Source: Sulfurovum sp.
GTDB taxonomy: Bacteria > Campylobacterota > Campylobacteria > Campylobacterales > Sulfurovaceae
Assembly (NCBI GenBank): GCA_020721815.1
Contig: DYMA01000008.1
Coordinates: forward strand, 1-32,347
Length of the DNA: 32,347 nt
Direction: 5' to 3'
Numbering within the stretch: position 1 is the stretch's first letter; every line of letters begins with the position of its first letter. Position numbers and translations under genes: made by a program. Positions 1 through 5,340 of this stretch are shown here, piece by piece. A model generated the notes under the pieces. The model was not told the origin of the DNA. It did no database searches and was given only the letters and a program-made list of their open reading frames with translations.

Positions 1-897
1 TAATTTTCTATTAAGAGTATCCCAATCCAATGAAAATAAGTTTTTATCATTATCTTTTATATTAAAATTTGTTCTTTCATCATTTACTGTTCTATCAAAA
101 AAAGTAGAAGTAACAAAAAAAAGCAATCCTTTATCCCTAGAAGTTCTAAAATTTACATCGAGTCCATCTTGTTTTACACTTCTTTTATCTGCACAATAAA
201 AACCTTTAATAGACGAGCCTTTTTGTTTATAAGATACTTTAAAGGTCTCTTCCATATCTCTAACTTTTATCGTAAACTCTTCATCAATGAAATTTGAGCC
301 ATGTTCTTTTGCTTCAATACTTTCTTTTAAAACATCATCAATATACAATTTAATCAAAACATTTTTATTTTCATCTACCATAAATTTGAATATTGATAAA
401 AAATGATTAATTATCTCTTTTGCTTCAACACTTAAATCTGATGATACTTCTCTATTTTCAATATTTATATATTTTAATTTTGTTTTTTTAACTAAAGTTT
501 CATTTTCTATTACTATTGGCTTTATCTCTTCTGTTTCCAAATTAAAATTGAATTTTATATTTTTATTATTGTTATGGCTTTCAAACTCTACTTTTTCACA
601 AATAGTTAGATAAGTAAACCTTCCTACACCTTTGCATCCTAAAGCTAATTTGTATTCACTCATATAATGATTGAATGAATCTATATTTTTATCTGTAAAA
701 CCATCTCCATTATCAACTATTGATACATTTTTAACTTTTCTAGTATCTCCAAATAAATTGGTGTCTATGGTATAAAAATAAATCTCAATTTCTGTTGCAT
801 TTGCTTGAATACTATTTGCTATAGCTTCATTAAGAACACTCAATAGCTTTAGATTTGTCGGTAATTTTTTTACGATTTGTTTAGTTGTTACTTTCAT
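1..897 (-). CDS. GHKL-type (HSP90/MutL/MORC-like) ATP-binding protein, 3'-truncated by window edge
   Basis: The minus-strand frame from ATG at 897 is open for 299 codons to position 1 with no stop, so the C-terminus lies outside the window; the ORF track omits it for that reason. The N-terminus has the Bergerat-fold motifs in order: N-box NEAIANS (about residues 23-29), the DxGxG motif VDNGDGF (61-67) and the glycine-rich lid GCKGVGRF (87-94). These are the ATP- and Mg-binding elements of GHKL ATPases. The later part, rich in charged residues, could be a transducer-like domain, but I do not recognise a subfamily. A histidine kinase is unlikely because the ATPase domain is at the very N-terminus and no H-box or membrane helix is visible. 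ATPases of this general type occur in MORC/MutL-like defence and restriction-modification loci, but nothing visible here proves that role. A small ORF ends 7 bases upstream, suggesting cotranscription. Confidence 0.75.
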   Translation of the reverse strand, partial: MKVTTKQIVKKLPTNLKLLSVLNEAIANSIQANATEIEIYFYTIDTNLFGDTRKVKNVSIVDNGDGFTDKNIDSFNHYMSEYKLALGCKGVGRFTYLTICEKVEFESHNNNKNIKFNFNLETEEIKPIVIENETLVKKTKLKYINIENREVSSDLSVEAKEIINHFLSIFKFMVDENKNVLIKLYIDDVLKESIEAKEHGSNFIDEEFTIKVRDMEETFKVSYKQKGSSIKGFYCADKRSVKQDGLDVNFRTSRDKGLLFFVTSTFFDRTVNDERTNFNIKDNDKNLFSLDWDTLNRKL

Positions 898-904
898 TGA
901 ATAT

Positions 905-1045
905 CTATTTCTTAATTTTTTTAGAATTTAAATTTGGTTGAAACACTCTTACTGATTCACCGTCACGCTTTTGGCTAGGTTGTGGCACCTTTAAATCCTC
1001 TTCCACTTTGGTGCGTAAAAAATCTTTGCTCTCGTTCATTACCAT
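905..1045 (-). CDS. small ORF (46 aa) upstream of the GHKL ATPase
   Basis: Starts at ATG 1045, preceded by a fair Shine-Dalgarno (AAAAGG, about 5 bases upstream), and ends at TAG 905-907, seven bases before the ATPase start. The product begins MVMNESKDFLRTKVEEDL and ends in a lysine-rich tail (NSKKIKK). It has no cysteine pairs, membrane helix or recognisable domain. The tight spacing and strand suggest a two-gene unit with the ATPase, perhaps a partner or regulator. It is below the ORF-track size cut. It could also be the re-initiated tail of the coding scrap directly upstream, whose stop codon touches this start. Confidence 0.42.
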   Translation of the reverse strand: MVMNESKDFLRTKVEEDLKVPQPSQKRDGESVRVFQPNLNSKKIKK

Positions 1046-1138
1046 TTAACCTTTTGATTTTGTCAGTGCGTATTTTATCCAATTAGTGCTTATAGAGCCT
1101 CTTTTAATACCTCTATTGTAATCCCTTGTTTTGATACT
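1046..1138 (-). pseudogene. start-less coding scrap after the porin stop
   Basis: Reading on in the porin frame after its TAG, 30 further codons stay open and end at TAA 1046-1048, immediately before the ATG of the small ORF. The translation contains NRGIKRGSISTNWIKYAL, which reads like the C-terminal end of a real protein rather than random sequence. It has no start codon and I cannot name the family. The porin ends with the phenylalanine typical of outer-membrane barrels, so this is not porin sequence. It may mark a deletion or insertion junction. Confidence 0.28.
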
Positions 1139-2265
1139 CTAAAAATGATAATTCACAAAAACTCTCATATTTGTAAACGACTCATCCTTGAAGCTTTTCT
1201 CTTCTATGTCGCTGTAGATGAGTTGAAGATTTAAGTTTGCGTTGTAGCTGTACTCAAGTGTAATATCACGTTCGTTGATAGATTGTAGAGTTTGGCGTTC
1301 TACATTGAGGTGAGCAATCCCCAATGTTAGATTCTCTATTCCCACTACACCCAAATCAAATGAAGCACCAACTAACAAAGCGTTAGCATTATCCCCGCCA
1401 TTGGCAACGGTAATATGCTCCGAACTCGTAAAAAAGGGCCCTCCGCCAAAAAAGTTATCGGCAGCTTTTCCATCCACTTCATTGTAGGCAAGTGTTGTTG
1501 TCACTCCAAAGGGTTCATAGGTGGCTTCAAGGGATACCCCGTAGATGGTTGAACGCTCCCCATTTTCGTAATCTTGAACGCTGTATTGTCCCGATAAAGT
1601 TGAATTGATAGCTCCCAATTGCAGATAATAATTGGCTTCAAAATATCCCAGTTTGGCTTGGTTGGGAATAGTGTAAACCCACGCTTTAAGTTGCGTATTT
1701 TCAACTCCTCCGTAAGTACCACCCACTATCCAAACACCGCTATCCCCATTCATTTTGCCAAAACTTTGGGGCGTGTGGCTATCTACTCCGCTCCATTTAT
1801 CAAGATAAGCAACAACTATCTTATTGCGTTTGGGTCTATTTTTATAGGTGAGTATCACGCCCTCAAAGGTGTATTGGGAATCATTCCTATATCATCGGCA
1901 TTGGCAAAGGGGCTATCAAAGGCTTGACGACCGATTACTACCTTTGTTAGCCCAAATTTTAGACGCAAATAGGCTTCACCCAAAATGGCATAGGAGTTGT
2001 TTTGATTATCATAAAAAGGCACACCAATATTTTCTTGGTTTTTAAGTGCATAGGTAGCATAGAGTGAAGCCCCCAATGCAAAGTAACCCTTTTGTTTTAG
2101 CTCAATATTAAGTTTGCCTCCCATTGCTTTATCGTGCTTATCCATCACGCCATCTTCAAGACTTTGATATCCTAGACGCAAATAGCCATCATGGCTCAAC
2201 TCCATTGCATTAATATCAATACTCATTGTCAATAATAATCCAAAAAAAATAGTTCGTTTCTTCAT
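1139..2265 (-). pseudogene. OprD-like outer-membrane porin, frameshifted
   Basis: Two overlapping frames together make one outer-membrane porin. The first (1855-2265) starts MKKRTIFFGLLL with a short signal peptide ending near DINA, continues with barrel-like sequence (LSHDGYLRLGYQS, LGEAYLRLKFG, VVIGRQAFDSP) and breaks off after MIPNTPLRA. The second (to 1139) resumes with VILTYKNRPKRNKIVVAY and finishes in VNYHF with the terminal aromatic residue used for BAM recognition. OprD-family proteins usually read through this point as MIPNTFE followed by a strand, so a 1-base loss (or 2-base gain) around 1860-1870 restores the normal protein of about 375 residues. The frames overlap by ATGA (GTG/TGA at 1855-1858). 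A sequencing error, a genuine inactivation or programmed switching are all possible. The gene lies 126 bases downstream of feoA on the same strand. Confidence 0.8.
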
Positions 2266-2319
2266 TGTAATCCTTATCGGTTAATTTAAATAAAAATATA
2301 TAGGCGAAAGTTTGGCAAA

Positions 2320-2384: not shown

Positions 2385-2414
2385 CTCAATCTCAATCAAT
2401 CTCAATCAATCTCA
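2385..2414. repeat. 10-bp tandem repeat spanning the feoA stop codon
   Basis: On the plus strand CTCAAT is followed by two exact CTCAATCAAT units and then CTCA. The array covers the last codons and the TGA of feoA (2392-2394). The unit length is not a multiple of three, so a change of copy number would alter the FeoA C-terminus and the distance to the hairpin downstream. Confidence 0.8.
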
Positions 2415-2610
2415 TTTCAGTTTGTCGCAATCCCACAAGGGTATCATCGACAAGAAGCTCTACGTTTTGTTTGCCTATAGCAAAGCCTCGTACTTCAATA
2501 TCAGCTCCTCTAGTGAGTCCTAAGGATTGAAGTCGTAGCTTCAAATCTTTTTGGGCGTGAATATCCACCACTTTGGCTTTTTCGCCAATATTCATATCTA
2601 CAATGCTCAT
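2392..2610 (-). CDS. feoA: ferrous iron transport protein A (FeoA)
   Basis: 72 residues, the usual size of FeoA, a small SH3-like cytoplasmic protein that supports FeoB in Fe(II) uptake. Family features are the N-terminal GEKAKVVDIHA segment, LKLRLQSLGLTRGADIEV in the middle and the end LVGLRQTEMRLIEID, corresponding to the 'IALR..EA..I.V' pattern of FeoA proteins. The start ATG at 2610 has AGAGGTG about 7 bases upstream and overlaps the stop of the toxin gene (ATGA), so translation is probably coupled. Unusually, feoA is separated from feoB by a toxin-antitoxin pair. The last codons lie in a 10-bp tandem repeat. Confidence 0.88.
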   Translation of the reverse strand: MSIVDMNIGEKAKVVDIHAQKDLKLRLQSLGLTRGADIEVRGFAIGKQNVELLVDDTLVGLRQTEMRLIEID

Positions 2611-2891
2611 TTGTTATTCACCTCTTTTGGTTTGTTTTGATTAAAAATTGAGACTATCTCAATGGATTGTGTCTCCGTTTTGATACGATAGACAATCGTA
2701 TAGCCTTTAAAAATCATATCACGAATCTCTTTGTTATTAAAATAGATTGATTGACGATATTGGTAGGGAAAATCTACCATATTATCAAGCTGAATGCGAA
2801 ATTTCTTACTTGCTCCAATCTTGTCTTTGGCAATAGTTTCTAAAATATGCAAAAGTTCATCTTGATACTGTTGAGTTTTTTGAATATTCAT
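2607..2891 (-). CDS. RelE/ParE-family toxin
   Basis: 94 residues. The C-terminal half shows the RelE/ParE core: FPYQYRQSIYF, EIRDMIFKGYTIVYRI and then a SIEIVSIFNQNKP strand. Toxins of this superfamily are ribosome-dependent mRNA nucleases (RelE type) or gyrase poisons (ParE type); the sequence does not decide which. The start lies inside the upstream antitoxin gene (35-base overlap) and the stop overlaps the feoA start by ATGA, so it is translationally locked into the feo operon. It shares its pattern (RDhxxxGYTVVY) with the decayed toxin at 18201-18317. Complete and probably functional. Confidence 0.82.
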   Translation of the reverse strand: MNIQKTQQYQDELLHILETIAKDKIGASKKFRIQLDNMVDFPYQYRQSIYFNNKEIRDMIFKGYTIVYRIKTETQSIEIVSIFNQNKPKEVNNK

Positions 2892-3132
2892 CTTCTAATC
2901 TTTCAAAAAGTGCATCAATTTGTTTTTGAGACTCTTGATCGGAATAGATTTTCATCTTTCCACTATCTATAGCTTCCAATGTTTTTTGAAGTTGCTCTTG
3001 ACGTTGATAAAAATAGGGATCTTGCACCCAATCAGGATTTTTTTGAAGTTTGATTTTATCTTTATAGCCTTCGATAATCCTCAAAAAATCTTGCATAAAA
3101 CTCTCTTCTACATTAATAATAAGGGTTTGCAT
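2857..3132 (-). CDS. putative antitoxin of the feo-embedded TA pair
   Basis: 91 residues, placed directly upstream of the RelE/ParE-type toxin and overlapping it by 35 bases, as is typical for antitoxin-toxin pairs. It starts MQTLIINVEESFMQDFLRII, a beta strand followed by a helix, and then becomes highly charged and helical (QRQEQLQKTLEAIDSGK, KQIDALFERLEDEYSK), a form suited to wrapping a RelE fold. I see no clear ribbon-helix-helix or HTH DNA-binding motif. The assignment rests mainly on gene order. It begins 49 bases after the feoB stop, so it is probably transcribed from the Fur-controlled feoB promoter unless it has its own promoter in the AT-rich gap. Confidence 0.7.
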   Translation of the reverse strand: MQTLIINVEESFMQDFLRIIEGYKDKIKLQKNPDWVQDPYFYQRQEQLQKTLEAIDSGKMKIYSDQESQKQIDALFERLEDEYSKNSTVSR

Positions 3133-3181
3133 TATTTTTCCTTTTTTATTTAATTTAACGTCAAAACGAACACATTCGTTT

Positions 3182-5296
3182 TTACGCCATGATTACCAAA
3201 ACTCTGTAGGTTATAAAACTCAATACCCACGCACTACCCGTTGTAAATACAAAAAGATAGCCCAAATATTTCCAACTTCCCGCTTCTCGTACAAATACCA
3301 TTGAAGCGGCCAAACAAGGGAGGTAAATCATAACAAAAACGATAAACGCCATAGCAGCAGGAAAGCTTATGTTTTGACGTAGCTGTTCTTGCAAATTGCT
3401 ACTTGTCTCATCACTCTCTCCTATTGCATAGAGTATTCCCAGTGTCGAAACCACCATCTCTTTGGCAGCTAGTCCCGTTTCCAAAGCAACCGCCATCTTC
3501 CAATCCATGCCCAAAGGCACAACCAAAGGCTCGGTAAATTTGCCGATAATGCCCAAATAGCTATTTTCAAGCAGTTTCATTTGCAACTCATTAGCCAAAG
3601 CCACCTTTGTCTCTTCCGCTGTTGCGTTTTCAATTTTTGTGTTGTAACTTGCTTCAAGCACCCTGTTTTTGGGATAGTTGCTCGCAAACCAAATCACAAT
3701 CGAAGCCAACAAAATAAACGTTCCTGCCTTTTTGAGATAGGAGAGTGCTTGTATGTAAACCGTATGCCAGATTAGCTTGAGTGAGGGCAAACGATACTTT
3801 GGCATCTCCATAACAAAGGGTTCATCCTCGCCTTTAAATACCAAAAGATGCAGCACTTTAGCCCCGATTAGCCCCAATAACGCCCCAGCAATATAGATGA
3901 GAAACAACACATTACCCGCACTGCTTGGGGCAAAAAAGGCAGAGACAAACAAGACATAAATAGGCAATCTCGCCCCACAACTCATAAAGCCAATGATAAA
4001 AAGTGTAAGCAATCTATCCCGTTCGTTTTTGAGTGTGCGTGCTGCCATGTAGGCGGGTACAGAGCATCCAAAGCCTGTCACAAGTGGGATAAAGCTCTTG
4101 CCGTGGAGTCCAAATTTGTGAAAAAATCCATCAAGCAAAAACGCCACACGGCTCATATAGCCCGTCGTTTCAAGCAGTGCAATACCGATAAAAAGGATAA
4201 TAATATTGGGCAAAAAAAGCACCACCGCTCCCACACCTGCAATCATTCCATCGGCTACCAATTGCCCCAAATTGCCCTCACCCAGTATAAATTTGGCTTG
4301 TTCTCCCAAATAGGCAAAAAAGGCATCAATATACTCCATAGGAATAGCCCCTAGCTCAAAGGTAAGCTGAAACAAAGCCCACATAAAAAAGAGAAAGATA
4401 GGAATCCCTACAATCTTGTCAATCAAAATATTATCAATTTTTTGCGTGAGATTGGCTGCTCGCATACTTTTGGTACTCATTACCTCCATTTTGACACCTT
4501 TGGCAAAGGCAAAATACTCATCGCTAAAGATTTGGGTTATATCTTGGGTGTCGGTATGAAGATAGATGTGCGTTTTGGCTTCACGGATAATCGGGGCTAT
4601 CTCCATCCAAATAGGCTTATCGTGGATAAGGGCATAGGCCTCTTTGTCTTCTTGCAACAACTTAATACTCATTTGACGATAGCTATAAGGTGAGACAAAT
4701 TTTTTGGCTTTGAGAAAAAAGTTAAGCTTTGCAATCTCTTCTTCCATAAAATCACTATAGACAACTTTGGAGGGAGTGTTTGGGCTATTGTGGGCTTTGA
4801 TAATAGCGCTTTTAAGCTCCTCTATCCCTATCTTTTTGTTGGCACTGGTTTTGATGCACGGTACACCCAAAATAGTGGAGAGTTGTTTGTGGTCTATCTC
4901 AATCCCCTCTTTGTTGGCTTCATCTATCATATTGAGGGCTACGACGACTTTTTTGCCCATCTCAAGGAGTTGCGTCGTAAAGGTGAGATTGCGTTGGAGA
5001 TGGGTAGAATCGACTACATTAACTATCACGTCATACTCATCGCTCAACAAAAAGCTTCGAGTGACTTTCTCTTCTATTGTATAATCCGTAAGCGAATAGG
5101 CTCCTGGTAAATCAATAATATCAACGCTGTAATCTTGACAACTCACCTCATCGCAAAATCTAAAATTGATTTGTGTCTTTTCTACCGTGACCCCCGAAAA
5201 GTTGCCTACTTTGAGTTTGGCATTGGAGATGGCATTAATGAGTGAACTTTTGCCCACATTGGGCTGACCTGCAAGAGCTACCTTGATTGTGTTCAT
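3182..5296 (-). CDS. feoB: ferrous iron transporter FeoB
   Basis: 704 residues, normal for FeoB. The N-terminal G domain has all motifs: GQPNVGKSS (G1, residues 10-18), NFSGVTVEKT (G2, 32-41), DLPG (G3, 62-65) and NMID (G4, 122-125). A helical GDI-type spacer follows, then about eight membrane helices with the two Gate repeats, GCSVPAYMAARTL and LPCLAASMVFVREAG, each with the conserved cysteine. It is the inner-membrane Fe(II) permease, gated by GTP hydrolysis. The ATG at 5296 has a good ribosome site (AAGGAAAAG). A perfect Fur-type palindrome lies 26 bases upstream, so repression by Fe-Fur is expected. It heads feoB-antitoxin-toxin-feoA. Confidence 0.96.
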   Translation of the reverse strand: MNTIKVALAGQPNVGKSSLINAISNAKLKVGNFSGVTVEKTQINFRFCDEVSCQDYSVDIIDLPGAYSLTDYTIEEKVTRSFLLSDEYDVIVNVVDSTHLQRNLTFTTQLLEMGKKVVVALNMIDEANKEGIEIDHKQLSTILGVPCIKTSANKKIGIEELKSAIIKAHNSPNTPSKVVYSDFMEEEIAKLNFFLKAKKFVSPYSYRQMSIKLLQEDKEAYALIHDKPIWMEIAPIIREAKTHIYLHTDTQDITQIFSDEYFAFAKGVKMEVMSTKSMRAANLTQKIDNILIDKIVGIPIFLFFMWALFQLTFELGAIPMEYIDAFFAYLGEQAKFILGEGNLGQLVADGMIAGVGAVVLFLPNIIILFIGIALLETTGYMSRVAFLLDGFFHKFGLHGKSFIPLVTGFGCSVPAYMAARTLKNERDRLLTLFIIGFMSCGARLPIYVLFVSAFFAPSSAGNVLFLIYIAGALLGLIGAKVLHLLVFKGEDEPFVMEMPKYRLPSLKLIWHTVYIQALSYLKKAGTFILLASIVIWFASNYPKNRVLEASYNTKIENATAEETKVALANELQMKLLENSYLGIIGKFTEPLVVPLGMDWKMAVALETGLAAKEMVVSTLGILYAIGESDETSSNLQEQLRQNISFPAAMAFIVFVMIYLPCLAASMVFVREAGSWKYLGYLFVFTTGSAWVLSFITYRVLVIMA

Positions 5297-5321: not shown

Positions 5322-5340
5322 AATGATAACAGTTATCATT
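5322..5340. promoter_or_regulatory. Fur box upstream of feoB
   Basis: AATGATAACAGTTATCATT is a perfect 19-bp palindrome (9-1-9) close to the classical Fur operator GATAATGATAATCATTATC. The minus strand carries TATCAT inside it, a plausible -10 element, so bound Fur would block RNA polymerase. Its position just upstream of feoB fits iron repression of the operon. The call rests on motif and context. Confidence 0.87.

What the first reader, a model, noticed from the sequence alone, without database searches (positions are those of the whole stretch)
2607..3132. TA module inserted between feoB and feoA in a Fur-controlled operon
The antitoxin and toxin sit in the same strand between feoB and feoA; the toxin start lies within the antitoxin gene and its stop overlaps the feoA start by ATGA. 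FeoA translation is therefore tied to toxin translation, and the whole unit is likely driven by the Fur promoter. Toxin and antitoxin levels would then rise under iron limitation, linking iron status to growth arrest or addiction to the iron-uptake locus.
Basis: partly seen in the sequence, partly recalled or inferred. Interest (0 to 1): 0.65.

Follow-up and report, generated by a model that had tools for sequence, protein, structure and literature searches.

The report
Promoterless ParE toxin-antitoxin inside feo operon
A small toxin-antitoxin gene pair has landed between the two genes of a bacterial iron-uptake system without bringing its own promoter, so it is probably switched on with iron uptake; gene capture of this sort is known, but this is a clean new example, and the toxin shows signs of being weakened.

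Summary
On the minus strand the order is feoB (5296-3182), a 91-aa antitoxin (3132-2857), a 94-aa ParE-fold toxin (2891-2607) and feoA (2610-2392). Antitoxin and toxin overlap by 35 nt; toxin and feoA overlap by ATGA. A conserved Fur-box-like palindrome lies upstream of feoB.

The pair is an insertion. In 92 of 94 family genomes with feoB then feoA, the gap is 13-289 nt; only this genome and Sulfurovum sp. FS08-3 carry the pair. A congener with 96% identical FeoB lacks it: the leader that precedes the antitoxin here sits directly before feoA there, so the indel boundary lies between ribosome-binding site and feoA start codon.

Thirteen of 18 relatives elsewhere carry a perfect TGnTATAAT promoter motif 16-38 nt before the antitoxin; the feo copies have none. 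That supports dependence on the feo promoter.

Two corrections. feoA has a good ribosome-binding site (GAGGTG) inside the toxin's tail, so coupling is plausible but not obligatory. The toxin lacks four helix-2 residues present in FS08-3 and the other relatives aligned, so it may be weakened; growth arrest under iron limitation is unproven. The best precedent is dinB-yafNO in the SOS regulon.

The parts
5324..5338 (-). Fur-box-like 7-1-7 palindrome TGATAACTGTTATCA upstream of feoB
   Evidence: Best match in the window to the Fur consensus (12 of 14). That score alone is reached in 28 of 100 simulated windows, but the site is conserved at the same place in five genomes of two genera.
3182..5296 (-). 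feoB, 704 aa, ferrous iron transporter
   Evidence: TIGR00437 626 bits, PF02421
3163..3182 (-). Hairpin AAAACGAA-TGTG-TTCGTTTT between feoB and the antitoxin; no T-run after it, so not a clear intrinsic terminator
   Evidence: Predicted fold -12.1 kcal/mol; shared with G002, where it precedes feoA; one copy in each of these two genomes, none in FS08-3
3135..3143 (-). Ribosome-binding site AAGGAAAAA of the antitoxin; the same leader serves feoA in G002
   Evidence: Alignment of feoB-feoA gaps
2857..3132 (-). Antitoxin gene, 91 aa, family without Pfam or NCBIfam entry
   Evidence: 20-member alignment; pairs with ParE-like toxins across Campylobacterota; helical model, no solved-structure match
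2607..2891 (-). ParE-fold toxin gene, 94 aa
   Evidence: PF05016; model pLDDT 84, Foldseek to PaaA2-ParE2, PfiAT and ParDE toxins
2780..2791 (-). Site of a 12-nt in-frame deletion in the toxin (QLD[KALD]NM), between CTTGATAA direct repeats
   Evidence: Alignment with FS08-3 and the other toxin relatives
2619..2624 (-). GAGGTG ribosome-binding site of feoA inside the toxin's 3' tail, 8 nt before the feoA ATG
   Evidence: Sequence; the tail KEVNNK is absent from the closest toxin relatives, most of which stop at or just after NKP
2392..2610 (-). feoA, 72 aa, start overlaps the toxin stop (ATGA); single detected copy in the genome
   Evidence: PF04023 47.5 bits; one match in G000

Best explanation
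A ParE-type toxin-antitoxin pair of a family widespread in Campylobacterota was inserted, without its own promoter, between the ribosome-binding site and the start codon of feoA in the common ancestor of this genome and Sulfurovum sp. FS08-3. It is now a passenger of the Fur-regulated feo operon: transcribed from the feoB promoter, translated from feoA's former leader, with overlapping starts and stops through toxin and feoA. Shown by sequence: the insertion, its boundaries, the overlaps, the conserved Fur-box-like palindrome and the absence of the relatives' promoter motif. Inferred: co-transcription, higher expression when iron is low, and retention because deletion would have to spare feoA's new translation start. 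The toxin copy in this window has probably been weakened by a four-residue deletion.
For: Empty sites: in 94 family genomes with feoB before feoA the median gap is 24 nt, and only the two pair-bearing genomes exceed 300 nt. G002 (FeoB 96%, FeoA 93%) lacks the pair and has the same leader directly before feoA. Relatives of the pair occur at non-feo loci. Promoter: 13 of 18 relatives elsewhere have perfect TGnTATAAT 16-38 nt before the antitoxin (chance 0.6% each), the feo copies none (5 and 6 of 8). In FS08-3 only about 20 nt separate the feoB stop from the antitoxin start. Fur-box-like palindrome conserved in five genomes; three FUR-family matches in the genome. Toxin identity: PF05016, ParE fold, profile match to solved ParE. 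Four-residue deletion.
Against: No transcript data. A weak TATAAC within the feoB 3' end cannot be excluded as an internal promoter. The 20-nt hairpin before the antitoxin could reduce read-through. Only two genomes carry the arrangement, both draft assemblies. The hairpin is shared by G000 and G002 but missing in FS08-3, so an extra loss or recombination event is needed.
Confidence: 0.68

Rival explanations
1. Working iron-responsive growth regulator: Fur derepression raises toxin and antitoxin, and unstable antitoxin lets the toxin slow growth when iron is scarce.
For: Conserved Fur-box-like palindrome and no separate promoter motif. Conserved toxin positions R57, D58, G63, Y68 are kept. A TA-iron link exists in PacTA of Pseudomonas aeruginosa.
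Against: Antitoxin precedes toxin on the same message, so co-induction alone does not free toxin. The window's toxin lacks four helix residues. Only two genomes keep it.
Confidence: 0.12
2. Decaying passenger: the toxin is already non-toxic, and the ORFs remain only because they carry feoA's ribosome-binding site and lie inside an operon.
For: 12-nt deletion in helix 2, not seen in the other toxins aligned. FS08-3 carries Glu at the nearly invariant Asp58. Changes in the pair between the two genomes are 3 nonsynonymous to 1 synonymous, against 3 to 12 in feoB (Fisher p = 0.07).
Against: Both reading frames stay open in both genomes. The numbers are too small to show relaxed selection. The model of the shortened toxin still folds as ParE.
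Confidence: 0.3
3. The pair has a promoter of its own within the feoB 3' end or the 49-nt gap and is expressed regardless of iron.
For: TATAAC in the feoB 3' end of G000 and FS08-3; type II pairs are usually transcribed from their own autoregulated promoter.
Against: No site approaches the TGnTATAAT of the relatives; consensus scans of the region find no excess over shuffles.
Confidence: 0.12

Closest known systems
dinB-yafNO of Escherichia coli
   Same: A type II toxin-antitoxin pair lying in a host operon under a stress repressor (LexA); induction by DNA damage comes from the host promoter upstream (PMC2814082; PMC7167474).
   Different: yafNO follows dinB and has a proximal promoter with a putative LexA box; here the pair lies between two genes of one transporter, has no recognisable promoter, and the repressor would be Fur.
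relA-mazEF of Escherichia coli
   Same: Toxin-antitoxin pair in an operon with a stress gene (PMC7167474).
   Different: mazEF lies downstream of relA and belongs to another toxin family (the family statement is from general knowledge); it is not between two genes of one transporter.
PacTA of Pseudomonas aeruginosa
   Same: Type II pair linked to iron and Fur and induced by iron starvation (PMC9561280).
   Different: GNAT toxin that binds Fur itself; not inside feo. Here the link would be by transcription only.
PaaA2-ParE2 and ParDE toxins
   Same: Predicted toxin fold (TM about 0.77) and weak profile matches.
   Different: Identity only about 22%; the antitoxin has no detectable similarity to solved antitoxins.
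RelE/ParE pairs on Campylobacter plasmids
   Same: Toxin 30-39% identical; the one record read has a small hypothetical gene directly before it.
   Different: Plasmid-borne; the one neighbourhood read has no feo genes.

Membership tests
Type II toxin-antitoxin, RelE/ParE superfamily | Toxin has the ParE/RelE domain above the curated cut-off | tested here: met
   PF05016 32.1 bits against 23
Type II toxin-antitoxin, RelE/ParE superfamily | Toxin has the ParE/RelE fold | tested here: met
   AlphaFold2 pLDDT 84; Foldseek best hits PfiAT, ParDE, PaaA2-ParE2
Type II toxin-antitoxin, RelE/ParE superfamily | Small antitoxin gene directly upstream, co-inherited with the toxin | tested here: met
   Antitoxin relatives precede toxin relatives at about 20 loci
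Type II toxin-antitoxin, RelE/ParE superfamily | Own autoregulated promoter (usual, not strictly defining) | tested here: not met
   Promoter motif of the relatives is absent here. This is a property of most members rather than of the fold, and its absence is the point of the finding.
Type II toxin-antitoxin, RelE/ParE superfamily | Toxicity neutralised by the antitoxin | not testable with these tools
   Needs expression assays; a four-residue deletion raises doubt
ParDE (gyrase-targeting) subgroup | ParD-type ribbon-helix-helix antitoxin | tested here: inconclusive
   Antitoxin model has three helices, pTM 0.36, no solved-structure match
ParDE (gyrase-targeting) subgroup | Target is DNA gyrase | not testable with these tools
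   No biochemical data
Fur-regulated feo operon | Fur-box palindrome upstream of feoB and a Fur protein in the genome | tested here: met
   TGATAACTGTTATCA conserved with small changes in five genomes; PF01475 at three places. Binding itself is not tested.
Fur-regulated feo operon | Co-transcription of feoB, the pair and feoA | not testable with these tools
   Needs RNA data

The most novel reading that the evidence does not exclude
A toxin-antitoxin pair has given up its own promoter and become a Fur-controlled element that ties growth rate and feoA translation to iron status; its toxin is tuned down so that it can be expressed at the level of a transport operon.
Probability: 0.1. Interest if true: 0.65.

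Novelty: new variant of a known kind. Interest (0 to 1): 0.4.

Why it matters
It is a start-codon-precise capture of a toxin-antitoxin pair by a core nutrient operon, with an empty-site relative and a pair-bearing relative to compare. It shows how a selfish pair can lose its own promoter and pass under a host repressor, and offers a test of whether toxins are weakened once that happens.

Tried and rejected
Hairpin as a dispersed repeat or mobile element end: rejected, one copy in each of two genomes. Hairpin as an intrinsic terminator: not supported, no T-run and no terminator call. Fur box by a 19-mer search with 3 mismatches: no hit; the 7-1-7 form and conservation gave the evidence instead. 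Antitoxin fold by structure search: no usable match. Literature search for pairs in feo operons: none of the 15 listed titles of 21 papers describes one. G107's 289-nt feoB-feoA gap was checked for another pair: no such ORFs were recognised, only an inverted-repeat element.

Full report
WHAT IS THERE. On the minus strand the window carries feoB (5296-3182), a 91-aa ORF (3132-2857), a 94-aa ORF (2891-2607) and feoA (2610-2392). The 94-aa protein matches ParE_toxin PF05016 above its cut-off, and feoA and feoB match their families. The 91-aa protein has no Pfam or NCBIfam family, but relatives of it stand directly upstream of relatives of the toxin at about 20 loci in Campylobacterota, so the pair is a toxin-antitoxin pair by gene association. 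The toxin model (pLDDT 84) matches ParE toxins of PfiAT, ParDE and PaaA2-ParE2. The antitoxin model is helical, of low pTM, and without a solved relative.

IT IS AN INSERTION. FS08-3 (G001; its contig C60 has the same length, 18426, as JQIS01000007.1, titled Sulfurovum sp. FS08-3, so these count as one genome) has the same order. In 94 genomes of the family with feoB followed by feoA, the gap between the matched ends has median 24 nt; the only two above 300 nt are this genome (574) and FS08-3 (552). G003 and G052 have feoB and feoA separated by little more than a ribosome-binding site. G002, with FeoB 96% and FeoA 93% identical, has no pair; its feoA is preceded by a leader (hairpin plus AAATTAAATAAAAAAGGAAAAA) that in this genome precedes the antitoxin. 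The boundary of the indel therefore lies between the ribosome-binding site and the feoA start codon. The outgroups favour a gain in the ancestor of this genome and FS08-3. The hairpin is present here and in G002 but not in FS08-3, which needs one extra event.

IT LACKS THE RELATIVES' PROMOTER MOTIF. In 13 of 18 antitoxin relatives elsewhere a perfect TGnTATAAT lies 16-38 nt before the antitoxin start. In shuffled 70-mers such a match occurs at 0.6%. The two feo copies reach only 5 and 6 of 8 positions, which is what shuffles give. In FS08-3 only about 20 nt lie between the feoB stop and the antitoxin start. The simplest reading is that the pair is transcribed from the feo promoter.

THE FEO PROMOTER. 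TGATAACTGTTATCA lies about 28 nt before feoB. On score alone it is not beyond chance for a window this size (12 of 14 positions, reached in 28 of 100 simulations), but the palindrome is conserved with small changes at this position in five genomes of two genera, with FeoB identity down to 73%. The genome has three FUR-family matches. Fur boxes upstream of feoB are described in Helicobacter pylori, and Fur and NikR motifs in the feo promoters of other Campylobacterota (PMC10353542). Fur control is therefore likely but not shown.

TRANSLATION. The antitoxin-toxin overlap is 35 nt and the toxin-feoA overlap is ATGA. In FS08-3 feoA also overlaps the downstream porin by 4 nt. The toxin has a six-residue tail (KEVNNK) beyond NKP, where most of its closest relatives stop; that tail contains GAGGTG, 8 nt before the feoA start. 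feoA can therefore be coupled to the toxin but also has its own ribosome-binding site.

THE TOXIN MAY BE WEAKENED. The window's toxin lacks four residues (QLD[KALD]NM) that FS08-3 and the other toxins aligned possess; the DNA shows a 12-nt loss between CTTGATAA repeats. FS08-3 has Glu at the nearly invariant Asp58. Between the two genomes the pair has 3 nonsynonymous to 1 synonymous changes, against 3 to 12 in feoB (p = 0.07): suggestive only. The deletion could be an assembly artefact.

COMPARISON WITH THE KNOWN. E. coli dinB-yafNO is the closest precedent: a toxin-antitoxin pair in a LexA-repressed operon, induced from the host promoter (PMC2814082; PMC7167474). PacTA links a different type II pair to Fur by protein contact (PMC9561280). 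No paper on a pair between feo genes was seen. This is a new variant of a known kind: capture between two genes of one transporter, precise at a start codon, without the promoter motif of the pair's relatives.

VERDICT.

Noticed in passing
window 1139-2265 (minus strand), shift near 1855-1870: The porin gene downstream of feoA is split by a frameshift in this window, while FS08-3 has one intact 369-aa frame. It could be a pseudogene, phase variation or an assembly error.
   Followed up: partly
window 2388-2416: The feoA 3' end runs into a short tandem repeat (ATTGAGATTG...), and its last ten codons differ sharply from FS08-3, as if a recombination junction lies there; the porin then starts 126 nt downstream instead of overlapping feoA.
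   Followed up: partly
L100 (G000:C192) 177-2273, minus strand: A second, intact pair of the same toxin-antitoxin family (toxin 49% identical) lies next to a RelE/YafQ-like pair and an ORF that looks like Cas2 (the Cas2 and YafQ names are from reading the sequence only).
   Followed up: no
L098 (G107:C29:7800-9000) about 560-900: In another family member the 289-nt feoB-feoA gap holds an element with inverted-repeat ends (GGAATACTATATCCACAAAA), resembling a MITE.
   Followed up: partly
G001 (FS08-3): FS08-3 has nine matches to this toxin family, several fragmentary or with internal stops, against two in the window's genome, which suggests that the family expands and decays quickly in this genus.
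   Followed up: no
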